A DNA stretch of 64,000 bases, from assembly GCF_000739065.1 (NCBI RefSeq), contig NZ_CP009149.1, positions 1,178,001 through 1,242,000 on the forward strand. Reading direction: 5' to 3'. A program made the position numbers and the translations under genes. The DNA is from Methanocaldococcus bathoardescens. GTDB taxonomy: Archaea > AGJL01 > Methanococci > Methanococcales > Methanocaldococcaceae. The notes below the pieces were generated by a model. The model saw nothing but the letters and a program-made list of their open reading frames with translations. It did not search any database and was not told the origin of the DNA. Of the stretch, positions 15,873 to 61,464 are shown piece after piece. Each line of letters begins with the position of its first letter. Position 1 is the stretch's first letter.

Positions 15873-15947
15873 GCCGGGGTAGTCTAGGGGCTAGGCAGCG
15901 GACTGCAGATCCGCCTTACGTGGGTTCAAATCCCACCCCCGGCTCCA
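15873..15947 (+). tRNA. tRNA-Cys (anticodon GCA), CCA encoded
   Basis: A complete cloverleaf: acceptor GCCGGGG pairs with CCCCGGC, the anticodon arm GCGGA/TCCGC encloses loop CTGCAGA (anticodon GCA), and the T arm GTGGG/CCCAC encloses TTCAAAT. The discriminator is T, as in tRNA-Cys, and CCA is encoded at 15945-15947. Sequence from the T loop to beyond the CCA is imperfectly repeated 153 bases downstream (see the next entry). Confidence 0.95.
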
Positions 15948-16103
15948 TTTGAAACTTTAAGAAAGTTTCATCAAAGCTAACACCTCCTCGCTTACGCTCG
16001 GAGGTGTAAATTAAGAGGCATTGCTTCCGTTAGGAAGCAATGCATCCGTTTTGATGAAACTTTTACTAAAAGTTTCGTTTAGATTTCACCTTCGGCTCCA
16101 TTT
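15924..16103. repeat. Palindromic element after tRNA-Cys flanked by copies of the tRNA 3' end
   Basis: Bases 15924-15950 (T loop to just past the CCA) recur at 16077-16103 with 21 of 27 matches; most differences are C to T in the second copy. The 126 bases between hold four palindromes in a row: 15951-15969 (GAAACTTT/AAAGTTTC), 15980-16007 (ACACCTCC/GGAGGTGT), 16018-16043 (GCATTGCTTCC/GGAAGCAATGC with a GTTA loop) and 16056-16076 (GAAACTTTT/AAAAGTTTC). The second tRNA-end copy begins on the base after the last palindrome, as in the element after rpl39e. From 16104 to the S19e start I see no gene; it holds a TATA-like TTTATATA at 16105-16112. Confidence 0.8.
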
Positions 16104-16350
16104 TTTTATATATGGCTTAGGTTCTCTTTTTTATAGAGTTAAATTTTAAACCTAAAGGTGTATCTATCAATAATAATAAGATATAAATATAACCTAATCA
16201 AATTAATACTAAGCTTGTTTTATTGGTTTAAATTACTCTCTTTGATGTGGAGTTTTATGCTACAAAAATCTAAATCTTAAACACAAAATAAATAAATTGG
16301 AAAGAAAATCAAAATAAATTAATTAAAAAATAATTGAGAGAGGTGCAAAA

Positions 16351-16797
16351 ATGGTAACTGTCTATGATGTTCCAGCTGATAAGTTAATTCAGAAGACAGC
16401 TGAAAAATTAAAAGAGATGAATATTGGAGTTCCAGAGTGGGTTCCTTTTGTTAAGACAGGAGTTAGCAGAGAGAGAAGACCTGAACAAGATGACTGGTGG
16501 TATATAAGGTGTGCATCAATCTTAAGAAAAATCTATATCTATGGACCTGTTGGTGTTTCAAGATTGAGAACTGCTTACGGAGGAAGAAAAAACAGAGGAC
16601 ACGCACCAGAACACTTCTATAAAGGTAGTGGAAACATCATTAGAAAAGCTTTACAAGAATTAGAAAAATTAGGTTTAGTTGAAAAGACACCAGAAGGAAG
16701 AGTTATTACACCAAAAGGAAGAAGCTTCTTAGACAACATTGCTAAAGAGGTTAGGGATGAAATAATTAATGAAATCCCTGCTCTTGCTAAGTACTAA
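16351..16797 (+). CDS. rps19e: 30S ribosomal protein S19e
   Basis: A 148-residue archaeal/eukaryotic-specific small-subunit protein. The winged-helix fold and family motifs [29 protein letters not shown] and [18 protein letters not shown] are clear. GAGAGGTGCAAAA precedes the ATG. It opens a compact cluster with the PDCD5-like gene, a PP-loop gene and rpl39e, with spacings of 11 bases or less and one short overlap, so it is probably an operon. Confidence 0.95.
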
Positions 16798-16808
16798 GGG
16801 GATGCTAA

Positions 16809-17138
16809 ATGGATGTTGAAGAAATTAAAAGAAGAAAGCTTCTTGAATTGCAAAAAAAGCTTGCTGAACAACAACAGCAAGAAGAGGAATTATTAGAGGC
16901 AGAGATGCAAAAAAGAGCATTATTAAGAAAGATATTAACACCCGAAGCAAGAGAGAGATTGGAGAGAATAAGATTAGCGAGACCTGAATTTGCTGAAGCT
17001 GTTGAAATGCAATTAATTCAGTTAGCTCAACTTGGTAGATTGCCTATTCCATTAAAAGATGAGGACTTTAAAGCTTTACTCGAGAGATTACATGCTATGA
17101 CAAAGAGAAAGAGAGACATTAAAATTATTAGAAAGTGA
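16809..17138 (+). CDS. PDCD5-family DNA-binding protein
   Basis: A 109-residue protein of the PDCD5/TFAR19 family. It has a basic helical N-terminus (IKRRKLLELQKKLAEQQQQ), a three-helix core (LTPEARERLERIRLARPEFAEAVE) and the end RLHAMTKRKRDIKIIRK. Archaeal members are annotated as DNA-binding proteins; the actual role, possibly with chaperonin or ribosome, is unsettled. The position directly after S19e is conserved in archaea as far as I recall, and it shares the operon. Confidence 0.88.
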   Translation: MDVEEIKRRKLLELQKKLAEQQQQEEELLEAEMQKRALLRKILTPEARERLERIRLARPEFAEAVEMQLIQLAQLGRLPIPLKDEDFKALLERLHAMTKRKRDIKIIRK

Positions 17139-17143
17139 AACTT

Positions 17144-17737
17144 ATGGATGTTCATGTTCTCTTTAGTGGAGGGAAAGATAGTTCCCTCTCTGCAGTGATA
17201 TTAAAAAAACTTGGTTATGAACCTCATTTAATAACTATAAATTTTGGTGTTATTCCTTCTTATAAATTGGCTGAAGAAACAGCTAAAATTTTAGGATTTA
17301 AGCATAAAGTTATAACTCTTGATAGAAAAATTGTTGAAAAAGCTGCTGATATGATTATTGAACATAAATATCCTGGCCCTGCAATACAATATGTTCATAA
17401 AACTGTCTTAGAAATTTTGGCTGATGAATATAAAGTATTAGCGGATGGGACAAGAAGAGATGATAGAGTCCCAAAGCTTAGCTATTCAGAAATCCAAAGC
17501 TTAGAGATGAGGAAAAATATCCAATATATAACCCCGTTAATGGGCTTTGGTTATAAAACTTTAAGATATTTAGCAAGTGAATTTTTTATATTAGAAGAAA
17601 TAAAAAGTGGAACTAAGTTGAGCTCTGACTATGAGGCAGAGATTAGGCATATATTGAAGGAGAGAGGAGAAAGCCCTGAAAAATATTTCCCTGAACATAA
17701 ACAAACAAGGGTTGTTGCTCTTAAAAAGAAAATTTAG
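17144..17737 (+). CDS. PP-loop ATPase (adenine nucleotide alpha hydrolase-like)
   Basis: A 197-residue protein with an N-terminal PP-loop, [13 protein letters not shown], as in tRNA-thiolation enzymes, GMP synthase and asparagine synthase. [18 protein letters not shown] is the second conserved patch. It is shorter than tRNA sulfurtransferases and has no obvious zinc or THUMP domain. The start is ATG 17144, with the GTGA that overlaps the previous stop as ribosome binding site. The substrate is unknown; the S19e/L39e operon suggests RNA or translation. Confidence 0.75.
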
Positions 17738-17745
17738 GTGAGATG

Positions 17746-17901
17746 ATGGGAAGTAACAAGCCATTAGGAAAGAAGTTAAGATTGGCTAAAGCATTAAAGC
17801 AGAATAGAAGAGTTCCATTGTTTGTTATTGTTAAAACACGAGGGAGAGTTAGATTCCATCCAAAAATGAGATACTGGAGAAGAAAGAAATTGAAAGCTTA
17901 A
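17746..17901 (+). CDS. rpl39e: 50S ribosomal protein L39e
   Basis: A 51-residue highly basic protein: [20 protein letters not shown], then [17 protein letters not shown] and the end YWRRKKLKA, the archaeal L39e. GGTGAG lies five bases upstream. The last 23 bases of the gene are duplicated 98 bases downstream, flanking a palindromic element. Confidence 0.95.
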
Positions 17902-17999
17902 GTGAATGGACATTAATTAGGGCTGAAAGCCCTAACTTAATGGACGAGTTTTGATGAAACTTTTACTAAAAGTTTCGAAGGAAGAAATTGAAGGCTTAA
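17879..17999. repeat. Palindromic element after rpl39e flanked by copies of the gene end
   Basis: The last 23 bases of rpl39e (17879-17901, including the stop) recur at 17977-17999 with 21 of 23 matches. Between them are a long palindrome at about 17910-17943 (CATTAATTAGGGCT against AGCCCTAACTTAATG) and, at 17949-17976, a 28-base unit (TTTTGATGAAAC to CTAAAAGTTTC) identical to 16049-16076 after tRNA-Cys. In both places the second gene-end copy starts on the very next base. The second copy also provides the stop codon of the converging UPF0146 gene. Confidence 0.8.
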
Positions 18000-18409
18000 A
18001 TTTGTTTTTCTTTTATATAAAACACTTCCTCTTTATAGTTTTTTAGTTTCAGTTCTTTTATGGGCATTTCATTTAAAAGAGGTCTTATAATTAAATTGGC
18101 ATTAATCTCTTTTGACAAATCTAAAATATACGGCTGTAAATCTCTCGGAGGTCTTATAGAATATATTAAATTAACATCTTTATATAAATCTATATTTGGA
18201 TTAAATAAATCATCCTTATAAGCCTTTAATCCAAACAATTTGGCTTTTTCAACTGCTCTTTCATTAATATCAATGACTATCAAATCAAAATATCTGCTTA
18301 ACTCTTTTGCAACATCAAATTTAAATCCAATCCCAACTTCAGCTATTTTTTTGCAGTTATTTTCTTCTGCAAAGTTTTTTATGAACTCAACTATCACTGC
18401 TGTATTCAT
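17996..18409 (-). CDS. UPF0146 family protein (Rossmann-like)
   Basis: A 137-residue protein with a truncated SAM-methyltransferase-like fold: KKIAEVGIGFKFDVAKEL, DLIVIDINERAVEKAK and LIYSIRPPRDLQPYI. The RPP motif is typical of UPF0146. No catalytic activity is known. The start is ATG 18409 with GTGGA upstream; an in-frame ATG at 18439 is less likely. Its final codons lie next to, and its stop lies within, the duplicated rpl39e tail, so that duplication also shaped this gene's end. Confidence 0.75.
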   Translation of the reverse strand: MNTAVIVEFIKNFAEENNCKKIAEVGIGFKFDVAKELSRYFDLIVIDINERAVEKAKLFGLKAYKDDLFNPNIDLYKDVNLIYSIRPPRDLQPYILDLSKEINANLIIRPLLNEMPIKELKLKNYKEEVFYIKEKQI

Positions 18410-18514
18410 TTTTCCACATCTTTGAAATTTTAGAAACATTTAAATATAAATAAATAATAAAAAATTCTGTCCAATTTGGACTTTACTTTACATTATTAAA
18501 CTGGGAGGGGAATT

Positions 18515-19507
18515 ATGAACTATAAATACCTAATACTTTCTTTATTTTTAATAGTTGGGGTTTTCTTTTCAGGATGCACACAGCAGATGACTGCAGATGA
18601 GATAGCAAAGAAAATGCAAGAAAAATATGAAGCTATCAACACTATGGAAGGAAATTTGGTAATGACATTAAATGTAAATGGAAAGATAGAGACGATACAA
18701 TATAAATATTCCTTTAAAAAACCAAATAAATACTATATGGAGAATGATGATGTTTTAATAGTTTCTGATGGAAAGATAATGTATCTTTATGATAAGAAGA
18801 GCAACAAATATATGAAAACAGAGATTAGTGGAGAAAATCCATACAACCCAGATTATGGAAAGTTTATTAAGGAAATGTTGAATGAATATGACGTCAAATA
18901 CTTAGGAGAAGAAAACTATGATAATAAAAAGTGCTATGTTTTAGAATTAACATCTAAAAAAGACCCAACAATTAAAATTAAAATGTATGTTGATGAAGAT
19001 TACTGGCAACCTCTCAAAATAGAAACAAAAGATATGATTATTGAATATAAAAATGTTAAGTTTGATGTAGATATTCCAGACAGCAAATTTACCTTTACTC
19101 CACCAGAAGGAGCGGAGTTAATAAGTTCTGGAAAAATAGCAACCTCAACCAATATAGATGAGATTCAAAAAGAAGTTAATTTTAAAATATTAATCCCAAA
19201 ATACACTGCAGGGCTTAAATTACAAAAGGCTAATTTAGCAAAACAAAATGTCGATGGAGAAGAATTTGAAATGGTTAGCTTAGTTTATGGAGAAAGCGGG
19301 GATTTAATAATAATGGAAATGAAAGATATAGGAAATCAGATGGATGTTGGCAATAAAATTACATTAAATAATGGTGTTAATGCTGCAATCTATGAGAGTA
19401 ATGGATATACAGCATTAACATTCTCTTACAATGGAGTTAGAGTAAGTATAATGAGCAAATTAAGTAAAGATGAGTTAATAAAAATAGCAAATTCTATGAT
19501 TGAATAA
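18515..19507 (+). CDS. Secreted lipoprotein, LolA/outer-membrane-lipoprotein-sorting-like
   Basis: A 330-residue protein with a signal peptide ending in the lipobox FFSGC (Cys21), so it is probably lipid-anchored outside the cell. Residues about 30-200 form a beta-sheet domain like LolA/DUF4367 proteins (YKYSFKKPNKYYME, LIVSDGKIMYLYD, KMYVDEDYWQPLKIE). A second domain of about 110 residues follows. GGGAGGGGAATT is a strong ribosome binding site. Such proteins are common in methanogens; the ligand is unknown. Confidence 0.7.
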   Translation: MNYKYLILSLFLIVGVFFSGCTQQMTADEIAKKMQEKYEAINTMEGNLVMTLNVNGKIETIQYKYSFKKPNKYYMENDDVLIVSDGKIMYLYDKKSNKYMKTEISGENPYNPDYGKFIKEMLNEYDVKYLGEENYDNKKCYVLELTSKKDPTIKIKMYVDEDYWQPLKIETKDMIIEYKNVKFDVDIPDSKFTFTPPEGAELISSGKIATSTNIDEIQKEVNFKILIPKYTAGLKLQKANLAKQNVDGEEFEMVSLVYGESGDLIIMEMKDIGNQMDVGNKITLNNGVNAAIYESNGYTALTFSYNGVRVSIMSKLSKDELIKIANSMIE

Positions 19508-19511
19508 AAAT

Positions 19512-20273
19512 TTATTTTTTATTTTTAATTATTTTCTCAGCAATTTCTTCAACTTTTTTATAAACTTCGTTATCTTCTGGAAGATTCCACAATGGAATGC
19601 CTTTTAAATCATACTCAGCAATTTCTTTATCATAAGGAAGTTTCCCAATCAAATTTAAACCAAGTTCTTTTGCATAATTTTCAATTAGCTCTTCATGCTC
19701 TGGCTTAACCTTATTTGCAACAACATAAATATCCTTAAACTTAACTTCTAACTCATTAGCTAATTTTTTTATTCTCTTTGCAGTTCCTAAACCTCTTTTT
19801 GATGCATCAGTTATAACAACCATCACATCTACATTTTGAGTAGTTCTTCTGCTGAGATGTTCTAAACCTGCCTCAGTATCTATAACAACAAATTCGTAAT
19901 CTTTTGATAGGTTATCAATAATCTGCCTTAGCCAATTATTTACACTACAATAACAACCACTACCTTCAGGTCTTCCCATAACCAATAAATCATAATATTT
20001 TGTTTCAACTAAAATTTCAAAAATCTTGCTTCTTAAATAATCTAATTTTGTCATTCCTGCTGGAATCTCATCCTTTTCAACTAACTTTTTTAACTCTTCC
20101 CTAATATCCCCTACTGTTTTTTCTACTTCAACACCTAAAGTTTCAGGTAAATTTGAGTCAGGGTCTGCATCAACAACTAAGATACTGTTTGTTTTTTTAG
20201 ATAATGCTTTAATTAATAAGGTTGTAAATGCTGTTTTCCCAACTCCGCCTTTCCCGCTTACAGCAATAATCAT
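19512..20273 (-). CDS. CooC-like MinD-family ATPase (nickel/CODH maturation)
   Basis: A 253-residue deviant-Walker ATPase. It begins MIIAVSGKGGVGKTAFTTLL, has DADPDSNLPETLGV (switch I), and carries GSGCYCSVNNWLR with the CxC pair that binds nickel in CooC dimers, then VVIDTEAGLEHLSRR. CooC inserts nickel into carbon monoxide dehydrogenase; in a methanogen this would serve acetyl-CoA synthase/CODH. The start is ATG 20273, with GTGGTGG upstream. It converges with the lipoprotein gene, four bases apart. Confidence 0.82.
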   Translation of the reverse strand: MIIAVSGKGGVGKTAFTTLLIKALSKKTNSILVVDADPDSNLPETLGVEVEKTVGDIREELKKLVEKDEIPAGMTKLDYLRSKIFEILVETKYYDLLVMGRPEGSGCYCSVNNWLRQIIDNLSKDYEFVVIDTEAGLEHLSRRTTQNVDVMVVITDASKRGLGTAKRIKKLANELEVKFKDIYVVANKVKPEHEELIENYAKELGLNLIGKLPYDKEIAEYDLKGIPLWNLPEDNEVYKKVEEIAEKIIKNKK

Positions 20274-20375
20274 TTTATGCCACCACAATAAAATATTTGA
20301 TTTAGTTGTTTATCCATTTTTCTTAGTATTAATAATTAATAACTATTATCTTCAACGTTTATAAATGGTGATGCT

Positions 20376-21500
20376 ATGTTATCAAAAAGACTTTTAAATT
20401 TTGAATCATTTGAAGTTATGGATATTTTGGCATTAGCCCAAAATTTAGAAAATGAAGGAAAAAAAGTTATACACTTAGAGATAGGAGAGCCGGATTTTAA
20501 CACACCAAAGCCAATTGTTGATGAAGGAATTAAAGCTTTAAAGGAGGGGAATACACATTATACAGACAGTAGAGGGATTTTAGAGTTAAGAGAGAAGATT
20601 GGTGAATTATATAAGGATAAATACAAAGCAGATGTAAATCCAGATAATATAATCATTACTGGAGGTAGTTCTTTAGGTTTATTTTTTGCTTTATCTTCAA
20701 TAATTGATGAAGGGGATGAGGTTTTAATTCAAAACCCTTCATATCCATGCTATAAAAATTTTATTAGGTTTTTGGGAGCTGAGCCAGTGTTTTGTGATTT
20801 CACAGTTGAGAGTTTAGAGAAAGCTTTATCTGATAAAACTAAAGCTATAATTATTAACTCTCCTTCGAATCCATTGGGAGAAGTTATAGACAAAGAGGTT
20901 TATGAGTTTGCCTATGAAAACATCCCCTATATAATCTCTGATGAAATCTACAACGGCTTAGTTTATGAAGGAAAATGCTATTCAGCAATTGAATTTGATG
21001 AAAATTTGGAAAAGACCATTTTAGTTAATGGATTTTCTAAGTTGTATGCGATGACTGGATGGAGAATTGGGTATGTTATATCCAATGAGAATATAATAGA
21101 TGCTATATTAAAATTACAGCAAAATTTATTTATCTCTGCCCCAACTATATCTCAATATGCAGCGTTAAAAGCATTTGAAAAAGAAACTGAAAAAGAAATA
21201 AATAATATGATAAAAGAATTTGATAGAAGGAGGAAATTAGTTTTAAAATACGTCAAAGATTTTGGATGGGAAGTTAATAACCCAATTGGAGCTTATTATG
21301 TATTTCCAAACATTGGAAAAGATGGGAGAGAGTTTGCTTACAAATTATTGAAAGAAAAATATGTTGCTCTAACCCCTGGAATTGGTTTTGGAAGTAAAGG
21401 AAAGAATCATATAAGGATTAGCTACGCTAATTCTTACGAAAACATTAAAGAGGGTTTAGAGAGAATTAAAGAATTTTTAGACGAAAATAATGATAACTAA
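20376..21500 (+). CDS. Class I/II PLP aminotransferase (AspB-like)
   Basis: A 374-residue fold-type I aminotransferase. Conserved points are EIGEPDFNTPKPIV, the NPSYPCY loop, NSPSNPLG, YIISDEIYNGLVYEG and the Schiff-base lysine in NGFSKLYAMTGWRIGY (about residue 224). The C-terminal Arg lies in HIRISYANS. The substrate could be aspartate, an aromatic or a branched 2-oxo acid and cannot be decided from sequence. GGTGATGCT precedes the ATG. Confidence 0.88.
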   Translation: MLSKRLLNFESFEVMDILALAQNLENEGKKVIHLEIGEPDFNTPKPIVDEGIKALKEGNTHYTDSRGILELREKIGELYKDKYKADVNPDNIIITGGSSLGLFFALSSIIDEGDEVLIQNPSYPCYKNFIRFLGAEPVFCDFTVESLEKALSDKTKAIIINSPSNPLGEVIDKEVYEFAYENIPYIISDEIYNGLVYEGKCYSAIEFDENLEKTILVNGFSKLYAMTGWRIGYVISNENIIDAILKLQQNLFISAPTISQYAALKAFEKETEKEINNMIKEFDRRRKLVLKYVKDFGWEVNNPIGAYYVFPNIGKDGREFAYKLLKEKYVALTPGIGFGSKGKNHIRISYANSYENIKEGLERIKEFLDENNDN

Positions 21501-21580
21501 AACTTTATGCACTATTGATATTAAATATTAAAAATAACATAAAATAATAAACTAAAAAAGAAACACCCGCGGTGATGAGT

Positions 21581-24505: not shown

Positions 24506-24659
24506 ATCGTTCTATTTATTTCTATTTATTTTTTAGGTGTAAGTTTTAAATATGACTAATAATTATTTTAGCATAACATCATTATGGATTTTTGTTTTTG
24601 CTTTTTTATTAATTTATTGAGCAATGATATTATTTTTTAAATCTTAAAAAGGTGAAACT

Positions 24660-25487: not shown

Positions 25488-25510
25488 AATTTTATTTTTT
25501 GGTGATTTGA

Positions 25511-26179: not shown

Positions 26180-26197
26180 TTATTTAGGTGAAAAATC

Positions 26198-29363: not shown

Positions 29364-30371
29364 ATGAAAATCACACGAATGCATGGAGCTGGAGGAAAGG
29401 TAATGCAGGAGCTTATAAAAAATATCATTTTAAAAAATTTGGAGATAACATCAGTTAATGGAGGAATTGGTTTAGAGAGTTTAGATGACTCAGCAACTAT
29501 CCCTATAGGAGATAAGGAGATTGTTTTTACTGTTGATGGACACACAGTTAAACCAATATTTTTCCCAGGTGGAGATATAGGTAGATTGGCAGTTAGTGGA
29601 ACTGTAAATGATTTAGCAGTTATGGGAGCTAAGCCATTAGCTCTATCTCTATCTTTAATAATTCCAGAAGGTTTTAACTTAGAGGATTTGGAAAAAATAG
29701 TTAAATCAATAAACGAAACTTCTAAAGAGGCTGAGGTAGCTATAATAACAGGAGATACAAAGGTATCTGATGGTGTTGATGATATTATCATCTCAACTGC
29801 TGGAATAGGGATTGTTGATAGAGGAAAAGCAATAAGGGATTGTAATGTTCAGGAGGGAGATGCAATAATAGTCTCTGGAAATATAGGAGAACATGGATTA
29901 GCTATTTTATTATCGAGAGAGGGATTCGATTTTGAAACAAACATAAAATCTGATGTAGCTCCAATAAATAAATTGATTGAAAAAGTATTGAATGAAGGTA
30001 TTCAAATAAATGCCATGAAAGACCCTACAAGAGGAGGTTTGGCAGATGCATTAAATGAGATGGCTGAAAAGAGCAATGTAGGAATAACTATCTTTGAGGA
30101 TAAAATCCCAATAAGTGATGAAGTTCAGTCAATTTGTGATATCCTTGGCTTAGACCCTTTAACTATAGCAAATGAAGGTAAGGTTGTAATGGCAGTTAAA
30201 AAGGAAGACGCTGAAAGATGCTTAGAGATTTTGAGAGAACATCCATTAGGAAAGAATGCAGAGCTTATTGGCTATGCTACAAAAGAACATAAAGGAGTTG
30301 TGATGGAAACAATTGTTGGTAGGAGAATTGTTGATATGCCGATTGGTGACCCAATACCGAGAGTGTGTTAA
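29364..30371 (+). CDS. hypE: Hydrogenase maturation protein HypE
   Basis: A 335-residue AIR-synthase-like enzyme that dehydrates the carbamoyl group on its own C-terminal cysteine to thiocyanate, the cyanide donor of NiFe hydrogenases. It starts MKITRMHGAGGKVMQELI, has FTVDGHTVKPIFFPGGDIG, and ends in the essential PRVC. The last 42 bases, encoding the catalytic tail and stop, are duplicated downstream around a palindromic element. The HypF partner is not in the window. Confidence 0.95.
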   Translation: MKITRMHGAGGKVMQELIKNIILKNLEITSVNGGIGLESLDDSATIPIGDKEIVFTVDGHTVKPIFFPGGDIGRLAVSGTVNDLAVMGAKPLALSLSLIIPEGFNLEDLEKIVKSINETSKEAEVAIITGDTKVSDGVDDIIISTAGIGIVDRGKAIRDCNVQEGDAIIVSGNIGEHGLAILLSREGFDFETNIKSDVAPINKLIEKVLNEGIQINAMKDPTRGGLADALNEMAEKSNVGITIFEDKIPISDEVQSICDILGLDPLTIANEGKVVMAVKKEDAERCLEILREHPLGKNAELIGYATKEHKGVVMETIVGRRIVDMPIGDPIPRVC

Positions 30372-30486
30372 ATAAGAGGCATCACCGAGCGAAGCGAGGT
30401 GATGCATCCTTGGGTATAGCAATAGGGCGGTAGCCCTATGCTACGTTGATATGCCGATTGGTGACCCTATACCAAGAGTGTGTTAA
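30330..30486. repeat. Palindromic element after hypE flanked by 42-bp copies of the gene end
   Basis: Bases 30330-30371 recur at 30445-30486 with 40 of 42 matches; the second copy still encodes VDMPIGDPIPRVC and a stop, out of context. The 73-base interval has two palindromes: module 1 at about 30375-30409 (GAGGCATCACC to GGTGATGCATCC) and module 2 at about 30412-30444 (AATAGGGC/GCCCTAT). Module order and orientation relative to the gene match the elements after cbiX and the M50 gene. Confidence 0.88.
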
Positions 30487-37551: not shown

Positions 37552-37735
37552 TTTTGATGAAACAGAAAGCTCTGCTTTCTGGCTACAAATCCGTAGGATT
37601 TGTTCAATCGAAGCGTTAGCTTCGGGTTATAAAAACTCTTATGAGTTTTTATTTAACCAAAGCGTTAGCTTTGGGCAATGAAAACCGTTAGGTTTTCATC
37701 TAACTTTTTCTAAAAGTTTCATGCAAACCTTTTTA
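37537..37735. repeat. Cluster of seven palindromes with an outer stem, after the MnmC-like gene
   Basis: Consecutive perfect or near-perfect hairpins lie at 37563-37581, 37585-37603, 37609-37624, 37629-37652, 37657-37674, 37678-37699 and 37702-37718. Three have CG..TTA-type GTTA loops. An outer pair encloses them: TTTGATGAAAC (37553-37563) and GTTTCATGCAAA (37716-37727). The left arm and the CTAAAAGTTTC right end resemble the elements after tRNA-Cys and rpl39e. The gene end ATGTTCAAATTTTAA (37537-37551) is weakly echoed by ATGCAAACCTTTTTA (37721-37735). Confidence 0.8.
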
Positions 37736-48701: not shown

Positions 48702-48722
48702 TTACCTCACCTCATTTTTGTT

Positions 48723-50726: not shown

Positions 50727-50744
50727 ATTTTTAATTTTTTATTT

Positions 50745-51329: not shown

Positions 51330-51368
51330 ACTCCCCACCCATAAACCTATCTAACAAATAACTCAATA

Positions 51369-51935: not shown

Positions 51936-52010
51936 CTCGCTCACCAAAATGTATAAATAAGATTTATCATTATTAATCATTACAAATACCTTTATAAATT
52001 GGTGATGTTT

Positions 52011-52280: not shown

Positions 52281-52311
52281 ATAAAAATTAATAGTGATAA
52301 TGGGAAAATAG

Positions 52312-53541: not shown

Positions 53542-53672
53542 TAGTAATCCCTCCATAACAATATACGAAATAAACATTTTTTGTTAATCTGGATTTTTAA
53601 TATTAAATCTTATATAAACCTAGTTACAAAATATTAATATATTTTTTTATTGATTTATTTTTAGGTGGAAAT

Positions 53673-54302: not shown

Positions 54303-54405
54303 ATGTATAGTTGGATACATTATTTGTATCTTTTTTTACTTTTTGTGGAAAATTTAAAATTTATGGATAAAACCCATGTTTTTTCTATATGCTTTACGTT
54401 CATAA

Positions 54406-54433
54406 ACTATATTAACAAAATACACAATATAGT
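54406..54433. promoter_or_regulatory. Inverted repeat, candidate operator or promoter of the envelope gene
   Basis: ACTATATT (54406-54413) and AATATAGT (54426-54433) are perfect inverted 8-mers separated by 12 bases, 160 bases before the secreted protein gene and just after the winged-helix gene. A G-rich run, GTGGGGAGGGGTGG (54446-54459), follows and looks like ribosome binding sites with no sizeable frame behind them. The rest of 54303-54593 is AT-rich leader with no gene that I can see. Confidence 0.45.
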
Positions 54434-54593
54434 ATAATCACAAATGTGGGGAGGGGTGGTAAAAGAGTAGAATTCAACAATACACATACTAAATTGCTAA
54501 ATCTACTTGATTAGTTTAATTAGTAGGGCTTTAAAATATTAAGTATAATTTTTAGTTGATGCAATATTTTCAATTATAACGGGGTGTTTAAAA

Positions 54594-55649
54594 ATGAAAA
54601 ATGCTAAAAGATATGTACTGTCTTTGTTACTCTCTATAATCATGGGAGTTGCGGTAATGGGCTCTGCATTTGCTCATTCAGGTTATGGAACAGGATATAC
54701 CGAAGGGTATAATACCTGTGTAACTGTATGTAATTACCCTCCTGAAATTGACTGCAATAGTTACGAACTTAAAATAACAACTCTACAAGGATGGAAAGTA
54801 TATGAATACAAGAATACAACCGGAGTAACTCCTAAGCTTCTAAGAAGTGATGCTTTAATGGCTTATGCATACACTGGAGAGGGAGTAACTTTCTATATAA
54901 ATGTTAGCGACCCTAACGGAGTGCAAGATTTACAAGCAATGGGTGCTGGAGTAGATTTCTTATTAGTTCCACAGGGAGGAAATCCTAAAAATCCAACATA
55001 CACAATCCCAGCAGGATTTGACCCATCAACAACTACTTCAACAGGCGCAACATTCTACGCACAATGGACAGTCCCTGCAGGAGCATACGGATGCTTCGAT
55101 GTCTATGTTAAAGCAAGAGACGGAAAACATGGACATGGACATGGAAAATGCACGAGACCGGTATTAAAGGGTAAAATATTCTTAAACCCAATGGTTGGAA
55201 TAGAGATTACAAAAGATAACGATAGATTTGAACCAAAAAATAACGATGGAAATGCAAATTATGCTCAATTTACTGGATTATGTTTCGGTAAGACAACTCC
55301 AGGAGCTACTAATGTCTCTGCAAAAGAGAATGTTGTAACAATCCACAATATCGACCCAGACAATGTAGGAACTCAGATGGCAGTATTCGTTTCAGCAACC
55401 TCAATGACACAGTCAAAAGGAACTGGAATAATTCCAGCAGAAAATATTAAAGCACATGTTATAAAGGCAAACAACGTAGCACAGAGCTACAGTGTTCACT
55501 TACAAAACAATGCCAGAGTATTATTATGGCAACCACTCAAACCATGCGACACAAATGCTTTAGAGGTTAATTTCACACTCGATGTCCCAACACCATTGCC
55601 AAGCGGTCACTACAAAGGTTCAATTGCATTCTATGGACTTGGACTCTAA
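54594..55649 (+). CDS. Secreted two-domain envelope protein
   Basis: A 351-residue protein with a clear signal peptide (LSLLLSIIMGVAVMGSAFA, predicted cut near residue 28) and no C-terminal anchor. The first part contains an Ig-like unit (VTFYINVSDPNGVQDLQ, then YGCFDVYVKARDGKHGHGHG with a His/Gly run). The second has VVTIHNIDPDNVGTQMAVFV and ends LPSGHYKGSIAFYGLGL. Nine cysteines are spread over both parts, excluding the signal peptide. Codons often end in C (ttc, tac, gac), unlike most neighbours, as in highly expressed genes. I do not recognise a family; a surface layer, sheath or pilus component is possible. Confidence 0.6.
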   Translation: MKNAKRYVLSLLLSIIMGVAVMGSAFAHSGYGTGYTEGYNTCVTVCNYPPEIDCNSYELKITTLQGWKVYEYKNTTGVTPKLLRSDALMAYAYTGEGVTFYINVSDPNGVQDLQAMGAGVDFLLVPQGGNPKNPTYTIPAGFDPSTTTSTGATFYAQWTVPAGAYGCFDVYVKARDGKHGHGHGKCTRPVLKGKIFLNPMVGIEITKDNDRFEPKNNDGNANYAQFTGLCFGKTTPGATNVSAKENVVTIHNIDPDNVGTQMAVFVSATSMTQSKGTGIIPAENIKAHVIKANNVAQSYSVHLQNNARVLLWQPLKPCDTNALEVNFTLDVPTPLPSGHYKGSIAFYGLGL

Positions 55650-55700
55650 ATCCCCAAATTTTTAATTTTTTTAAATTTTTAGATATTATGGTGATTACTT

Positions 55701-56237
55701 ATGAAAAATTTTTCTGTAATTTCTGGTTTATTAGCAATTATATTTATTACTTTAGCTATTTCACAAGTTAATGGTTTAAGTGGGGCTATAACTCCACCAA
55801 AAATTGATATTATGGCTAATGCAAGTAATGGATTTCCTCAGGATGTAAATAGTATCATTTATATAAAAAATCCTAATGACTTTCCAGTTAGGGTAGAAAT
55901 CCTTACAACTGGTGATTTAAATAATTCTGAAAAAGTAGAAGTTAAAATTAATGAAAATAACTTCACATTAAAACCAGGAAGAACTGTTAGAGTAAATATT
56001 ACGTTTACTGTAAAAGAAAATGACAAATATGAAGGAAATATTTTAACAAAAATTAGTCCATTGGATTATGGAGATAATAAAGAAGGTGTAAGTCTAAAAG
56101 CGAGTGTAGTTTTACCTACAAAAGTTGCGATAATGGTAGTTGATAGTGAAAATTATATAAAAAAAATGGCAATTACTGCAGTTTTAATTATGAGTATGTT
56201 GGGAATGGGAATCATGCTTATTAGAAAGTATATTTAA
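55701..56237 (+). CDS. Membrane-anchored Ig-like envelope protein
   Basis: A 178-residue protein with a signal peptide (SGLLAIIFITLAISQVNG), a beta-sandwich domain with the pattern of pilus-chaperone-like/COG1470 Ig domains (NSIIYIKNPNDFPVRVEI, FTLKPGRTVRVNITFTV), and a C-terminal helix (MAITAVLIMSMLGMGIMLI) ending RKYI. The domain should be outside, with a short cytoplasmic tail. It is 51 bases after the secreted protein gene and could anchor or chaperone that protein. GGTGATTACTT is the ribosome binding site. Confidence 0.6.
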   Translation: MKNFSVISGLLAIIFITLAISQVNGLSGAITPPKIDIMANASNGFPQDVNSIIYIKNPNDFPVRVEILTTGDLNNSEKVEVKINENNFTLKPGRTVRVNITFTVKENDKYEGNILTKISPLDYGDNKEGVSLKASVVLPTKVAIMVVDSENYIKKMAITAVLIMSMLGMGIMLIRKYI

Positions 56238-56280
56238 TTTGAATTTCTTTTAAAAGCTATTTGGTGTTTAAAGTGGTAGT

Positions 56281-56571
56281 ATGAAAATTCTTCCAACTCT
56301 TTCAAATAACAAAAATAAAAGATATAAGAGGTCCCCATTTGAAGTGATTTTTGAAATATTGCATACCATTAAAGAGGGGGAGCAAATAAAGACAAGGATT
56401 ATGTATGCTGCAAACTTGGATTGGAGAAATTTCTCAAGATATATGGATTTTTTAATTGATAAGGAGTTTATTAAAAAGAATAAAGATGACAAATTTGAAC
56501 TTACAGAGCTGGGGAAAAAGCTATATTTTTATTTATGTGAGTTGTTTGAGATTATAAACTGTAAACCTTAA
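56281..56571 (+). CDS. Winged-helix protein (HTH_45 type), stand-alone
   Basis: A 96-residue protein matching the C-terminal domain of the 53673 protein: EQIKTRIMYAANLDWRNFSR, YMDFLIDKEFIKKNKDDKFE, LTELGKKLYFYL. It should be a dimeric DNA-binding protein of the Sso10a/HTH_45 group. A basic N-terminus (NNKNKRYKRS) precedes the fold. GTGG upstream of ATG 56281. It follows the anchored envelope gene by 43 bases and precedes a helical-domain gene. Confidence 0.7.
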   Translation: MKILPTLSNNKNKRYKRSPFEVIFEILHTIKEGEQIKTRIMYAANLDWRNFSRYMDFLIDKEFIKKNKDDKFELTELGKKLYFYLCELFEIINCKP

Positions 56572-56594
56572 ATCTCAAATTGTGAGGGATAGAT

Positions 56595-56948
56595 ATGAAA
56601 AAATTTGGAATACTTTTATTTTCAGACATTGTTAAAGAATGCATGAATGGAGATGAATTTGCAAGAGAAATTATTGAAGATTTGCTTAATTTTTTAATAA
56701 AATTACGGATTTGGAGATGGAAATATTTGTTATCACAAAATCAAAAAAATGAAATTCAAATGTCAGAGTTGTTACCACTAATAAAAGAAGAGAAAGAAGA
56801 AATTGACAGATTATTTTCGTTCCTATATAATACAGATATCTCTGTTGAGAATAGAATTGAAATTCTAATGTTATTAAAAGAATTTGTGAAAGAGGAAATT
56901 AAATGGATTTTAATGGATGCTAACCAGGTTAATCTTGTAAGAAAATAA
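56595..56948 (+). CDS. Small helical protein related to the N-terminal domain of the upstream regulator
   Basis: A 117-residue all-helical protein. The segment RLFSFLYNTDISVENRIEIL followed by MLLKEFVKEEI parallels IYSFLHCNDNQLKINCLAVL plus RNLYLKGKI in the 53673 protein, so it looks like the detached helical partner of the 96-residue winged helix. GTGAGGGATAG precedes the ATG. Together, genes 56281 and 56595 resemble a split version of the 53673 protein. Function unknown. Confidence 0.55.
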   Translation: MKKFGILLFSDIVKECMNGDEFAREIIEDLLNFLIKLRIWRWKYLLSQNQKNEIQMSELLPLIKEEKEEIDRLFSFLYNTDISVENRIEILMLLKEFVKEEIKWILMDANQVNLVRK

Positions 56949-57040
56949 TGCTTTTTTACATAAATAATTTTAACAACATTGTAAAATTCTACCATTTTAA
57001 TTATGTAACTATAAATTTAAATTTACAGATTATAGAAAAG

Positions 57041-57073
57041 TTTATATAGAACTTCAAAAACACAATTTATATA
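57041..57073 (+). promoter_or_regulatory. Tandem TATA boxes before hsp20
   Basis: TTTATATAGAA occurs at 57041 and again at 57066, exactly 25 bases apart. Initiation from the first box would fall at or near the second, giving a leader of about 30 bases with the GGTGGGGG ribosome binding site. The second box would give an almost leaderless mRNA. A duplicated core promoter or an overlapping repressor site is plausible. Confidence 0.55.
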
Positions 57074-57100
57074 GAAAACTAAAAGAGAGAGGTGGGGGAC

Positions 57101-57544
57101 ATGTTTGGAAGAGACCCATTTGATTCATTGTTTGAAAGGATGCTTAAAGAGTTTTTCACAACACCAATGACTGGAACCACAATGATTCAAAGCTCAACAG
57201 GAATTCAAATATCTGGAAAAGGATTTATGCCTATCTCAATTATTGAAGGGGATAAGCATATAAAAGTTATTGCATGGTTGCCAGGGGTTAATAAAGAAGA
57301 CATAGTTTTAAATGCAATTGGTGATACATTAGAGATTAGGGCTAAAAGAAGTCCATTAATGATAACTGAAAGTGAAAGAATTATTTACTCAGAAATTCCA
57401 GAGGAAGAAGAGATTTACAGAACAATAAAACTTCCTGCTAATGTTAAAGAGGAGAACGCATCAGCTAAATTTGAGAATGGTGTTTTAAGTGTTACTTTAC
57501 CAAAGGCAGAATCTTCAATTAAGAAAGGTATTAACATTGAATAA
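57101..57544 (+). CDS. hsp20: Small heat shock protein Hsp16.5 (Hsp20 family)
   Basis: A 147-residue small heat shock protein, nearly identical in my recollection to M. jannaschii Hsp16.5, which forms a hollow 24-mer binding unfolded proteins. It has an N-terminal arm [19 protein letters not shown], the alpha-crystallin domain ([18 protein letters not shown], then [15 protein letters not shown]) and the C-terminal I-x-I type tail ending KKGINIE. The start is ATG 57101 behind GGTGGGGGAC. Confidence 0.97.
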
Positions 57545-57609
57545 TTTACTTATTTTATTTTTATATTAAATTACATCTATAGAATCATATATTTAAATTA
57601 GGTGAAGAA

Positions 57610-58239
57610 ATGATAAAGAAAAAGCACTTAGAGATGATATTGGATTCTTTAAAAAGGCATCCAAACCCAAAAGTTGATTTAGAACAATATACAATAGATG
57701 GAAAGTTAGCATCTGACATTTTATTTTTTGCAGTGAATGATTTTTATGGCAATGTTGTTATTGATTTAGGATGTGGAACTGGAAGGTTAGCTATAGGTAG
57801 CAAAATTTTAGGAGCTAAGAGAGTTATTGGTGTAGATATTGATAAAGAAAGTATTGAAACTGCAAAAGAAAATGCTAAAAAGCTGAATGTTGATATAGAT
57901 TTTTATTGCATGGACATTAGGGATGTTGATGATGAATTTTTAAATAACGTGCTTGGAGAGGATAGAAATTTAAAGAAGGTTATTATTCAAAATCCTCCTT
58001 TTGGAGCTCAGAAAAAACACGCTGATAGGATATTTTTAGATAAAGCATTAGAAATTGGGGACATAATTTATACTATCCACAACTACCCAACAAAAGATTT
58101 TGTTATGAAGTATGTTGAAGATAAAGGAGGGAAAATAACTCATATCTATGAAGCGTTTTTTAGAATTCCCGCAATATATGAATTTCATAAGAAGAAGGTT
58201 GTAAATATTCCTGTAGTTGTTTTTAGAATAGAGATATAG
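57610..58239 (+). CDS. METTL5-like RNA/DNA adenine methyltransferase
   Basis: A 209-residue SAM-dependent methyltransferase of the COG2263/METTL5 type. SAM site GNVVIDLGCGTGRLAIGSKI, acidic GVDIDKESIETAK, catalytic IIQNPPFGAQKKHADRIFLD, and the end VFRIEI. Eukaryotic METTL5 makes m6A in 18S rRNA; the archaeal version probably modifies 16S rRNA, but this is inference. GGTGAAGAA is the ribosome binding site. Confidence 0.82.
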   Translation: MIKKKHLEMILDSLKRHPNPKVDLEQYTIDGKLASDILFFAVNDFYGNVVIDLGCGTGRLAIGSKILGAKRVIGVDIDKESIETAKENAKKLNVDIDFYCMDIRDVDDEFLNNVLGEDRNLKKVIIQNPPFGAQKKHADRIFLDKALEIGDIIYTIHNYPTKDFVMKYVEDKGGKITHIYEAFFRIPAIYEFHKKKVVNIPVVVFRIEI

Positions 58240-58481
58240 CATTATATGTTTAAATATTCAATGACATTTATCACGCGGAATGTTCCTTATTTTCAATTTA
58301 AAGCTTTCTAAAAACTTATTTTTCAATTTTAATAATTTTTATCAAATTTCTAAGGTTAGTTATTTTAAAGATTTTATTTACTTGGATTTATTAAATTATA
58401 GAGATTTTTAAGAAATTTTGGATAATTATTTTTAAATTAAAATTTCCCCGATAATTAAGAAGTTTTTAAAAATCCATAAAA

Positions 58482-58643
58482 TTTATATATGGTTAAGATA
58501 AAGAATAACCTTAGATTAAAAACTTCGAGGGTTTATAAATAATAAGGTTAAAATCAGACCGATTCGGTATGGAAACTAACTCCCACCTCCTTTTTTATTT
58601 TTTTAACCACTGTTAAAATCAGACCTCTTGGAGGATGGAAATA
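58482..58643 (+). CRISPR. Two-repeat, one-spacer CRISPR-like remnant with leader-type promoter
   Basis: GTTAAAATCAGACC begins two units: 58548-58577 (30 bp, ending TATGGAAAC) and 58613-58643 (31 bp, ending GATGGAAAT). They enclose one 35-bp spacer (58578-58612). The frame matches the M. jannaschii CRISPR repeat as I remember it. The central stem differs but is kept in each: ACCGA/TCGGT in the first, CCTC/GAGG in the second. TTTATATA at 58482-58489 could drive transcription into the unit. No cas gene is near. The rest of 58240-58547 is AT-rich leader-like DNA with no gene seen. Confidence 0.7.
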
Positions 58644-58667
58644 CTCAACAATAAAAATAAGGAATGA

Positions 58668-59480
58668 CTAATAATAAACCTTACAAACAATTGGATTTTT
58701 TAAGATGGATAAAGCATCATCTAACGTCTCTTTTTTTGAAATACAAAATAAAGTATTTCCTAACATAGATTGAGAAGCTCCAACTGTAAATTTTAAATCT
58801 TCACAGATATCTAAAATTTTTTCATTTATAAGCTCTGTATTTACAGCAAATTTGTATGAGAGATTAACAAAATTTTCCAAAGTGGGATTTTTTAAAAGCT
58901 CATTTAAACATCTCTCTCCATATTCGTTTATCTTTTTAATCCATTCTTCATTTGTTATTATCTCTTTTGTCTCTTTTTTTCCAAAAATTTCAATTATAAT
59001 ATAATAATCATCATTAACAGCGATTTTTTCAACATTTATAGGAAATCCAGGAGCTTTTCTTATAACGAATCCTTTTGTATATTGAGCTATCACATCCCCT
59101 AATCCAGTTCCGCACTCTACTTCACTTATATGAGCTATCTCTACATAATTTTCATTTAAATTTAGTGTTTCATTTAATTTTTTAGCTAATATTAAAGCAC
59201 ACCCTCCAGACATTCCTAATCCACTACCTAAAGGAAAATCAGATGAGAATATTATATCATAATCATCATTATATCCAAATTCTTTATAATATTCAACAAC
59301 CTTTTTAACAACACAAATATCTACCTTTTTATCATTATAAAAAACATCTCCGTTTCCCTTTTTTAGCTCAATATTGACTCCTCTATTTATGGTGATTCCA
59401 GCACCTATAGAACCAGTTTTTAACTTATTAGAGGATTTACAAATTGCAAAAAATCCCGTTATATGCCCTGGAGCAAACAT
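58668..59480 (-). CDS. Pantoate kinase (GHMP family)
   Basis: A 270-residue GHMP kinase. It starts MFAPGHITGFFAI, has FPLGSGLGMSGGCALILAK (ATP loop) and GTGLGDVIAQYTKGFVIRK, with the C-terminal VGASQSMLGNTLFCI. Archaea use pantoate kinase with phosphopantothenate synthetase in place of bacterial PanC/CoaA for coenzyme A synthesis. GGAGGTTGAGTT is the ribosome binding site. Downstream of cbiX and its palindromic element on the same strand. Confidence 0.88.
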   Translation of the reverse strand: MFAPGHITGFFAICKSSNKLKTGSIGAGITINRGVNIELKKGNGDVFYNDKKVDICVVKKVVEYYKEFGYNDDYDIIFSSDFPLGSGLGMSGGCALILAKKLNETLNLNENYVEIAHISEVECGTGLGDVIAQYTKGFVIRKAPGFPINVEKIAVNDDYYIIIEIFGKKETKEIITNEEWIKKINEYGERCLNELLKNPTLENFVNLSYKFAVNTELINEKILDICEDLKFTVGASQSMLGNTLFCISKKETLDDALSILKNPIVCKVYY

Positions 59481-59606
59481 AACTCAACCTCCTTAATTAC
59501 TTAAAAAATAGTTTAAGTTCATGTTTATCAGTTTGTGTAGTTTAAAATAGTTTATAAAATTATTGTTATACAATAAAAAAAGATTTCAAATTTTTAATTT
59601 TCAAAT

Positions 59607-59727
59607 TTATCTTCCAAACGCTCTATACGCTATAGGGCTACTGCCCTATTGGTATACCGGGATGCACTACCTCGCTACGCTCGGCAGTGCCTCTTCTTTA
59701 TTTGTTCTTATCTTCCAAACGCTCTAT
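59607..59727. repeat. Palindromic element after cbiX flanked by 20-bp copies of the gene end
   Basis: The 20 bases at 59708-59727 (end of cbiX including the stop) recur identically at 59607-59626. The 81-base interval carries, in the cbiX direction, module 1 (GAGGCACTGCC to GGTAGTGCATCC) and then module 2 (GGTATACCAATAGGGC against GCCCTAT). The second copy abuts module 2, as after hypE and the M50 gene. Confidence 0.88.
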
Positions 59728-60154
59728 CGATAATTATATCTACAATCCTATCATCAGCACCTATTGGTTCTCTGTAAATAATTTCAACATCTTCTGGAAT
59801 CTCTAACTTTTCATGTTCGTGATGATGGTGATGATGGTGATGGTGCCCATGGCCGTGTTCATGATGATGGTGTTCATGTTCTTCATCATCATTAATTAAC
59901 CCTAACAACCTTGGAATATCTCTTGTTGTATGGATTCCATGAGCTAAGAAAACAGGAACAACAATAATTTTTTTAGCTCCCTGCTCAATTGCTTTTTTAA
60001 CTGCTTGTGGAATTGTAGGTTCATTAAATTCCATTAAACCTATTTCAACAATTGGAAATATATTTTTTTCTTTAACCTTTTCGGCTAATTTTACTAAAAG
60101 CTCTTTACTATATGGTAGTCTACTACCATGCCCTACCAATACCAATGCTTCCAT
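59708..60154 (-). CDS. cbiX: Sirohydrochlorin cobaltochelatase CbiX (short form) with histidine tract
   Basis: A 148-residue CbiXS that inserts cobalt, or nickel for F430 (CfbA role), into sirohydrochlorin. It starts LVLVGHGSRLPYSKELLVKL with the metal-binding His, has VPVFLAHGIHTTRDIPRLLG with the second ligands, and carries a run of about 20 His interspersed with Glu/Gly near residues 92-115, a probable metal-storage loop. It acts as a homodimer. GGTGAGGTT precedes the ATG. Confidence 0.93.
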   Translation of the reverse strand: MEALVLVGHGSRLPYSKELLVKLAEKVKEKNIFPIVEIGLMEFNEPTIPQAVKKAIEQGAKKIIVVPVFLAHGIHTTRDIPRLLGLINDDEEHEHHHHEHGHGHHHHHHHHHEHEKLEIPEDVEIIYREPIGADDRIVDIIIDRAFGR

Positions 60155-60261
60155 AACCTCACCATTATTATTTTACGTGGTAGAGTTCATACTAACTATT
60201 ATATATATTTTTTTCATTTATTTATGAATTTAATTAAAATCAAATTATGGAGGAGTAATGC

Positions 60262-61353
60262 ATGGACACTTCTAAATTCATCTTAATTGTGGCAATAATA
60301 ATTTGGCTAATTTTATATGTTATTAGGGATTCAATAAACTTAAAAACCTATGGAGGAATTTTTGGAATTTTAAGAACTAAATTGGGGTTAAAAACAATTG
60401 AAAAATTAGGAAAGTATAAAATTTGGCAGAAAATAGGAATTATCTCTATACCAATATGTGTAGTACTTGGGTTTATTATGCTTTTCAATATAATAGCTAT
60501 GAGTATAAAGCTGTTATCAGGAACTCTGCCAAAAGAAGCGGCAAAACCAGTAGTGTTTTTGTTTGGAGATGTAATTCCATGGATTCCAGGGATTATAGCT
60601 CTATTAATAGCAATTTCAGTACATGAATTAGCACATGGTATATTTGCAAGGTCTTTTGGAATTAAGGTTAAAAGCTCAGGAATTTTATTATTATTGGGTC
60701 TTCCATTGGGAGCTTTTGTTGAATTAGGAGATGAGTTTAAAAATGCAGAGAAAAAAATTAGAGGAGCTATTGCTTCAGCAGGACCATTAGCAAATTTATT
60801 GATTTTTTTAATATCAATTCCACTACTTTCATTTAGCTACACATTACCAACAGAGTTAAAAATTATTGATGTTAAAGAGCCAGCATCTGAGTTTTTACAA
60901 AAAGGAGATGTTATTTATGAGATTAACGGTAAAAAAATAAATTCATTAGAAGATTTTAGAGAATTTGCCAAAACCATAGAACCAAATAAAGAGTATGAAA
61001 TAAAAGTTTTGAGGGATAATAAAATACTGACGTATAAAATTATTAGCTCTGATGAAGGAAAGATTGGAGTTATGGTTTCACCAACAAAAAATACAGCACT
61101 ATTCATAAATACAATATACTGGACTTATTGGTTTAACTTTTTATTGGCTTTATTTAACTTACTTCCAGCAATGCCTTTAGATGGCTTTCACGTATGGAAT
61201 GCTTTCCCAGAATTATTAAAAGAGAGAAAAAATAGATTTATTGCAAAGATTGGACAGATATTAGAATTGTTTATAAATGAAAAAACTTTGGGCTCAATAA
61301 CCCTTTTGGTTTGGTGGATTATTCTTGGAAGTATATTATATTCGATGTGGTAG
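60262..61353 (+). CDS. Site-2 protease-like M50 membrane metallopeptidase
   Basis: A 363-residue protein with about six helices. The zinc site is HELAH in IAISVHELAHGIFARSFGI (about residue 120), and the second site LLPAMPLDGFHVWNAF gives the conserved Asp. A PDZ-like domain (VKEPASEFLQKGDVIYEING) lies between them, as in S2P/RseP proteases that cleave membrane-bound regulators. The target is unknown. GGAGGAGTAATGC is the ribosome binding site. The gene end is duplicated downstream. Confidence 0.88.
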   Translation: MDTSKFILIVAIIIWLILYVIRDSINLKTYGGIFGILRTKLGLKTIEKLGKYKIWQKIGIISIPICVVLGFIMLFNIIAMSIKLLSGTLPKEAAKPVVFLFGDVIPWIPGIIALLIAISVHELAHGIFARSFGIKVKSSGILLLLGLPLGAFVELGDEFKNAEKKIRGAIASAGPLANLLIFLISIPLLSFSYTLPTELKIIDVKEPASEFLQKGDVIYEINGKKINSLEDFREFAKTIEPNKEYEIKVLRDNKILTYKIISSDEGKIGVMVSPTKNTALFINTIYWTYWFNFLLALFNLLPAMPLDGFHVWNAFPELLKERKNRFIAKIGQILELFINEKTLGSITLLVWWIILGSILYSMW

Positions 61354-61464
61354 GATTTAATTTCTCTTTATTTATGAGGCATTGCCGAGCGTTAGCGAGG
61401 CAATGCATCCTATCCCAATAGGGCGAAGCCCTATGGTTCGGGAAGTATTTTATATTCAATGTGG
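61327..61464. repeat. Palindromic element after the M50 gene flanked by 24-bp copies of the gene end
   Basis: Bases 61327-61350 recur at 61441-61464 with 22 of 24 matches. The 90 bases between hold module 1 (GAGGCATTGCC to GGCAATGCATCC, about 61376-61411) and module 2 (CCAATAGGGC against GCCCTAT, about 61416-61435). The second copy ends in the GTGGTGA that serves as ribosome binding site for marC. Confidence 0.88.

What the first reader, a model, noticed from the sequence alone, without database searches (positions are those of the whole stretch)
15924..61464. Family of modular palindromic elements bounded by duplicated gene 3' ends
At five places (tRNA-Cys, rpl39e, hypE, cbiX, M50 peptidase) the last 20-42 bases of a gene recur 98-153 bases further on, enclosing palindromes; two weaker cases follow rpl40e and the MnmC-like gene. 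The modules are shared. Module 1 is GAGGCA...TGCATCC with a stem that differs between copies but stays paired. Module 2 is CCAATAGGGC...GCCCTAT. Module 3 is TTTTGATGAAAC...CTAAAAGTTTC. Modules 1 then 2 occur in the same order and orientation after hypE, cbiX and the M50 gene; modules 1 then 3 occur after tRNA-Cys. The second gene-end copy always begins right at the element's end. This implies insertion that duplicates 20-42 bp spanning the stop, or an element carrying a copied gene end, so the host gene stays intact. I know of no described element family with this exact rule.
Basis: seen in the sequence. Interest (0 to 1): 0.85.

Follow-up and report, generated by a model that had tools for sequence, protein, structure and literature searches.

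The report
Palindromic elements flanked by duplicated gene ends
Heat-loving Methanocaldococcus archaea carry about 100-base hairpin elements wedged between a working gene end and a second, displaced copy of the same gene end, and the two copies differ almost only by silent changes, which suggests that these tiny elements travel with a spare gene end so that they do not break the gene they land in.

Summary
I collected 104 module-1 elements from 11 Methanocaldococcus genomes. Among the 88 not beside CRISPR repeats, 47 have a detectable flank duplication against 2.1% of mismatched controls. (1) Orientation: the copy on the module-1 side is joined to the full gene in about 36 of 36 classifiable cases, for gene 3' ends and gene starts alike; the copy at the module-2/3 end is the displaced one. 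(2) The copies differ mostly silently: 79 synonymous to 28 nonsynonymous codons; a 'target-site duplication then decay' simulation gives 0.35 synonymous and never reaches the observed 0.74. (3) Homology stops at the stop codon or just past the ribosome-binding site. Relatives without an element have one clean gene end. The same gene ends are reused in several species with different modules, and one locus holds two elements in tandem. Plain insertion plus drift is excluded. Best model: a palindromic element travelling with its own copy of a gene end, as in fungal mitochondrial 'mobile C-termini'. Old insertions reshaped by gene conversion and interspecies exchange remain a serious rival. The palindromes are probably the known MJRE repeats; the gene-end rule appears undescribed.

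The parts
15924..15950 (+). tRNA-Cys 3' part from the T-loop (GTTC) on: gene-joined copy
15951..16076 (+). composite element: inverted module 3 (15951-15976), module Y palindrome (15980-16007), module 1 (16015-16047), module 3 (16049-16076)
16077..16103 (+). displaced copy of the tRNA-Cys 3' end (GTTTAGATTTCACCTTCGGCTCCATTT)
17878..17901 (+). end of rpl39e, gene-joined copy
17908..17976 (+). element: module X (17908-17946) and module 3 (17949-17976); with its surroundings 75/75 identical to the element at rpl39e of G003
17977..17999 (+). displaced copy of the rpl39e end, identical to the gene-joined copy of G003
30330..30371 (+). end of hypE (gene 29364-30371), gene-joined copy
30376..30444 (+). 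element: module 1 (30376-30409) and module 2 (about 30420-30440)
30445..30486 (+). displaced copy of the hypE end; 2 of 42 differ, both silent; followed by the native downstream sequence seen in G006
59708..59727 (-). end of cbiX (gene 59708-60154), gene-joined copy
59631..59693 (-). element: module 1 (59660-59693) and module 2 (59631-59652)
59607..59626 (-). displaced copy of the cbiX end, 20/20
61327..61352 (+). end of the M50 peptidase gene (60262-61353), gene-joined copy
61376..61436 (+). element: module 1 (61376-61410) and module 2 (61415-61435)
61441..61466 (+). displaced copy of the M50 gene end with the native TGA stop and native junction to the next gene, as in element-free G003
37552..37720 (+). 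composite palindromes of the same family after the MnmC-like gene; no gene-end copy found
2617..2641 (-). inverted module 2 after rpl40e, between two 12-nt copies of the 3' UTR (2601-2612, 2703-2714)

Best explanation
The palindromic elements (E) are small non-coding mobile DNA whose transferable unit is 'copy of a gene end + short filler + E'. The unit is exchanged at the orthologous gene end of another cell or species, most likely by homologous recombination within the shared gene end. One gene-end copy stays joined to the gene and keeps it working; the other is pushed to the far side of E, next to the native downstream DNA. Serial events at one site stack up or swap modules. Shown here: the anatomy, its fixed orientation, the silent-change bias, clean empty sites, reuse of the same gene ends, tandem stacking. 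Inferred: that the gene-end copy travels with E, that homologous recombination does the joining, and that an enzyme acting in trans (not identified) starts new insertions.
For: Orientation about 36:0, the copy on the module-1 side is always the gene's working end. 86 of 120 differences at third codon positions, 79 synonymous vs 28 nonsynonymous codons; 0 of 1000 drift simulations reach this. Level and kind of divergence are those between orthologs of different species: 57 syn/9 nonsyn over 203 codons versus 41/7 over 138. The two copies can have different closest species: in G003 L018 the working copy equals G011 in codons (0 syn), displaced copy 4 from G011, 7 between copies; in G006 L021 the working copy equals G000 (0), 5 between copies. 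rpl39e element 100% identical between G000 and G003 while gene body is 94%, downstream 91%, and the displaced copy of G000 equals the working copy of G003. Ferredoxin-like locus (L191 family): two element types each come with their own C-terminus (...EAL* or ...EALLP*), and G007 has both in tandem. Homology ends at stop codon or just past the ribosome-binding site. Clean empty sites in relatives.
Against: Several sites keep the same right junction across the whole genus with different modules (L191 family; L215 family), which reads as old insertions. Within a species the two copies are often more alike than either is to another species' copy (rpl39e in G006 100%, L186 in G003 and G007 100%), which points to gene conversion or local re-insertion. 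No enzyme, no free form, and no element on plasmids, phages or viral contigs was found. Copies are short (20-78 nt), so species affinity per locus is weakly resolved. New associations with new genes still need an unexplained founding event.
Confidence: 0.48

Rival explanations
1. Old transposon-like insertions made a long target duplication once. Since then the two copies have been kept alike by gene conversion, and the gene-joined copy has been repeatedly replaced by alleles from other species through ordinary homologous recombination, giving silent differences. E itself no longer moves.
For: Right junction conserved genus-wide at L191 and L215 loci; copies within a species often most alike; modules differ at one and the same junction (L200: module 3 in G001, module 2 in G003 and G011); genes next to elements look exchanged between species, e.g. 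the G013 L026 and L223 genes are 87-92% identical to jannaschii-group genomes while genome-wide bodies give 82%.
Against: Needs conversion limited to the coding part, plus frequent allele import, to reach 74% synonymous; several gene ends carry different junctions in different species (hypE: G000, G003, G011), so insertion recurs. An identical element in G000 and G003 at rpl39e implies recent exchange of E.
Confidence: 0.32
2. A Cas1/casposase-like or other integrase inserts E with a long target duplication, using tRNA 3' ends, CRISPR repeats and gene ends as targets.
For: Casposons have target duplications of 1-27 nt and target tRNA 3' ends and the 3' end of the aEF-2 gene (PMC4046053); here displaced tRNA copies begin at the T-loop GTTC and about a dozen elements abut the first base of a CRISPR repeat.
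Against: Duplications reach 78 nt and vary; no terminal inverted repeats of casposon type, no Cas1 or polymerase cargo; protein-gene copies diverge silently, not by decay.
Confidence: 0.1
3. Simple MITE-like insertion with a 20-78 bp target-site duplication, after which the displaced copy drifts as dead DNA.
For: Some pairs are identical (L186 35/35, L221 34/34, L013 20/20) and one displaced copy has decayed with a premature stop (L030).
Against: Synonymous fraction 0.74 versus 0.35 expected, maximum 0.49 in 1000 simulations. In no classifiable module-1 pair does homology run more than 3 nt past the stop codon, even in identical pairs.
Confidence: 0.05

Closest known systems
Mobile C-terminus elements of fungal mitochondria (Allomyces macrogynus atp6; Glomus atp6, atp9, cox2, nad3; PMC3630166)
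   Same: A mobile insert brings a foreign C-terminus that becomes the gene's end; the native C-terminus lies displaced downstream; the two copies differ, and in Glomus the native end differs from a relative only synonymously.
   Different: There the insert encodes a homing endonuclease; here the insert is about 70-250 nt of palindromes with no ORF of that kind, in archaeal chromosomes, at dozens of genes, and also at gene starts, tRNAs and CRISPR repeats.
MJRE palindromic repeats of M. jannaschii (Suyama, Lathe & Bork 2005; cited in PMC2229807 and PMC2996958)
   Same: Same genus, short palindromic dispersed repeats, sometimes read into proteins. Very likely the same sequences.
   Different: I could not read the 2005 paper (not held). 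Fixed orientation, gene-end duplication and silent divergence are not mentioned in the two citing papers.
Integrative elements whose attP carries a gene 3' end (tRNA T-loop or protein-gene sites; from my own knowledge)
   Same: Gene end restored by one copy, other copy displaced; tRNA copies start at the T-loop.
   Different: No integrase; each site has a different gene end; elements about 100 nt.
Casposons (PMC4046053)
   Same: Target tRNA 3' ends and a protein gene 3' end without breaking the gene.
   Different: Large, polB/Cas1-encoding, terminal inverted repeats, short perfect target duplications.

Membership tests
MJRE palindromic repeats | Dispersed palindromic repeats in Methanocaldococcus jannaschii | tested here: met
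   20 module-1 and 52 module-2 exact copies in G003, a genome whose length (1,664,970) I recall as that of M. jannaschii; stems covary
MJRE palindromic repeats | Published MJRE1-3 consensus sequences | not testable with these tools
   FEBS Lett 2005 paper not held (tried a wrong DOI; no held paper carries the consensus)
Fungal mitochondrial mobile C-terminus elements | Foreign gene end joined to the gene, native end displaced downstream | tested here: inconclusive
   Two diverged functional-type copies with different species affinities; which one is foreign is not settled at every locus
Fungal mitochondrial mobile C-terminus elements | Homing endonuclease ORF inside the insert | tested here: not met
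   Inserts of about 40-270 nt made of palindromes
MITE / insertion with target-site duplication | Identical duplicates at insertion, then neutral decay | tested here: not met
   Silent-change bias and functional homology boundary
Casposon / Cas1 integration | Terminal inverted repeats, Cas1 and PolB, duplication of 1-27 nt | tested here: not met
   No such genes between the copies; duplications up to 78 nt
Tyrosine-integrase integrative element | Integrase gene in the element | tested here: not met
   No coding capacity in the elements; a trans-acting integrase elsewhere was not sought
REP/RAYT elements | RAYT transposase and GTAG-type REP hairpin | not tested
   No search for RAYT genes was made
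Known structured RNA | Rfam match | tested here: not met
   Window scan gives only a tRNA and two CRISPR repeats

The most novel reading that the evidence does not exclude
Methanocaldococcus genomes host non-coding palindromic elements that home between species at orthologous gene ends, each lineage carrying its own replacement gene end (or gene start with ribosome-binding site) and displacing the resident one. This would be a gene-sparing mobile element with no gene of its own and a built-in engine for interspecies exchange of protein termini.
Probability: 0.38. Interest if true: 0.85.

Novelty: new variant of a known kind. Interest (0 to 1): 0.66.

Why it matters
It would explain how small palindromic repeats accumulate without breaking genes, and it would be an archaeal chromosomal counterpart of the fungal mitochondrial mobile C-terminus. 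It also records past interspecies allele exchange in a readable form: two diverged gene ends side by side. It affects annotation (wrong C-termini or N-termini, spurious short ORFs) and gene trees in this genus. The enzyme that starts new insertions in a genus where the element is common is a concrete open question.

Tried and rejected
Plain target-site duplication with drift: rejected by codon-position counts and simulation. Known structured RNA: no Rfam match. Carriage by plasmids, phages or viral contigs: none found (the first viral scan, used a pattern too loose to be useful). Microhomology at the right junction and a target consensus: none seen by eye. Elements outside the genus: the family search returned only the same 14 genomes; a named scan of 84,980 genomes with one strict module-1 form hit only Methanocaldococcus (that strict form misses most variants and may exclude the window's own and near genomes). 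Formal proof of which copy is foreign failed: the five jannaschii-group genomes are nearly equidistant (87-89%), so 20-78 nt rarely resolve donors. The first null was contaminated by overlapping and homologous pairs and was redone within genomes.
Full report
Setting. The window lies in a single 1,607,556-base contig. The one strict module-1 form I could search in named genomes hit only a Methanocaldococcus MAG, whose contig 105 (29,534 bases) matches G011 contig 105 of the unnamed set. Gene-body identities define a group of five near-equidistant species including the window's genome (G000, G001, G003, G006, G011; 87-89%), a tight group G004/G005/G009/G010 (95-98%) and a pair G007/G013 (95%). 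From contig lengths I recall G003 as M. jannaschii; this is memory, not a test.

Observation. Scored against all gene ends of the window they stand out, except tRNA-Cys taken alone. Of the weaker cases, rpl40e is a repeat of 3' UTR and the MnmC-like gene has only palindromes.

Extent. Module 1 has 16 exact copies in this genome and occurs in 11 of 14 genus genomes; module 2 has 48 copies here and 52 in G003, with reversed controls near zero. The module-1 stem is paired in 97.8% of cells with many two-sided changes. I collected 104 module-1 elements with flanks. Leaving out those beside CRISPR repeats, 47 of 88 have a flank duplication of score 16 or more, against 2.1% of control pairs drawn within genomes.

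Rule 1, orientation. The copy on the module-1 side is the one continuous with the full-length gene: 35 left-only, 2 both (the right ORF there is the next gene), 1 right-only. By reading its sequence I re-assign that last one, L197, to the left, because its gene-joined copy ends ...IDLNENKIFIEG*. This holds whether the gene points towards the element (3' end) or away from it (gene start plus ribosome-binding site). The displaced copy starts directly at the module-2/3 hairpin or within a few nt. tRNA copies begin at the T-loop GTTC.

Rule 2, silent divergence. In 32 ungapped coding pairs the differences fall 21/13/86 on codon positions 1/2/3; 79 changed codons are synonymous, 28 not. If one copy were under selection and the other dead, 35% of changed codons would be synonymous (maximum 49% in 1000 simulations); observed 74%, bootstrap 63-83%. 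Over 15 families the copies differ like orthologs of different species. Both copies have therefore spent most of their divergence as functional gene ends.

Rule 3, functional boundary. Homology between the copies ends at the stop codon (exactly there in L012, L013, L030, L165, L196, L221), within 3 nt beyond it, or earlier; for gene starts it ends just past the ribosome-binding site. The displaced copy continues into native downstream DNA; the gene-joined copy continues into filler and then the element, often with the element's own TAAGAGG supplying the stop. A fresh target duplication would not stop there.

Comparative sites. Element-free relatives have one clean end: hypE in G006 and G001; the L192 gene in G006, where the stop overlaps the next start exactly as in the displaced copy of G003; the L184 gene in the other group members; M50 in G003; L215 in G005. 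The same gene ends recur as hosts with different elements: hypE (G000 modules 1+2, G003 module 3 with seven silent differences between its copies, G011 another), the L213 gene (G007/G013, G001, G000) and the L215 gene in seven genomes. In the L191 family one element type comes with the ending EAL*, another with EALLP* plus shared filler, and G007 has both in tandem, so that three gene-end copies alternate with two elements. In the L200 family displaced copies are followed by a remnant TTCTAAGAGGC of an older element in G003, i.e. they look like former working ends.

Movement. The rpl39e element is 75/75 identical between G000 and G003 while gene body is 94% and downstream 91%; the displaced copy in G000 equals the working copy in G003. 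In G003 and G006 the working copies of L018 and L021 equal, at synonymous sites, those of G011 and G000, while the displaced copies do not. In L215 of G009 the gene-joined copy matches element-free G005 in its inner part, and the sequence beyond the displaced copy matches G005 over its 3' UTR, while the inner part of the displaced copy is different. That is the pattern expected of a single crossover within the gene end. These cases favour exchange of E together with a gene end.

Counter-evidence. Junctions conserved genus-wide and within-species likeness of the two copies show that many insertions are old and that conversion or re-insertion homogenises them. I cannot separate 'E travels with a gene end' from 'old duplication plus conversion plus allele import' at every locus; I put them at about 0.48 and 0.32.

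Known relatives. What it works like: the mobile C-termini of fungal mitochondria, where an endonuclease-bearing insert supplies a foreign C-terminus and displaces the native one (PMC3630166). It is not a member: no endonuclease. The palindromes are probably MJRE repeats (Suyama et al. 2005, known to me through PMC2229807 and PMC2996958; original not held). Casposons share the habit of gene-sparing 3'-end targets but not the anatomy (PMC4046053).

Verdict. Element family probably known, gene-end rule apparently not described, mechanism partly inferred.

Noticed in passing
L019, L039, L180, L182, L201, L202, L208 (G004/G005): About a dozen elements in the G004/G005/G009/G010 group sit beside CRISPR arrays, with the element's right end abutting the first base of a CRISPR repeat and a shortened terminal repeat on the left.
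   Followed up: partly
L245 / L042 (G007): Tandem stack: gene end, element 1, second gene end, element 2, start of a third gene-end copy at the contig edge.
   Followed up: partly
window 58547-58642: Two adjacent CRISPR-type repeats with different stems (Rfam RF01326 on plus, RF01358 on minus) separated by about 35 nt, with no larger array.
   Followed up: no
L026 and L223 (G013): The Cas4-like gene and the L223 gene of G013 are 87-92% identical to jannaschii-group genes while gene bodies genome-wide give 82%: likely horizontal acquisition.
   Followed up: partly
L002 350-1545 (G000): Composite nested palindromes on both sides of hisA, built from modules 1, 2, 3 and Y nested in each other.
   Followed up: partly
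L395 (G006, after cbiX): A different, larger structured insertion follows cbiX in G006 (AAGGGGTCTATAGTATGTGTGC...), unlike the modules described here.
   Followed up: no
tRNA cases L011, L028, L189, L194, L203, L015: In all displaced tRNA copies GTTC of the T-loop reads GTTT, which suggests that the last bases of the element's right end overlap the junction.
   Followed up: no
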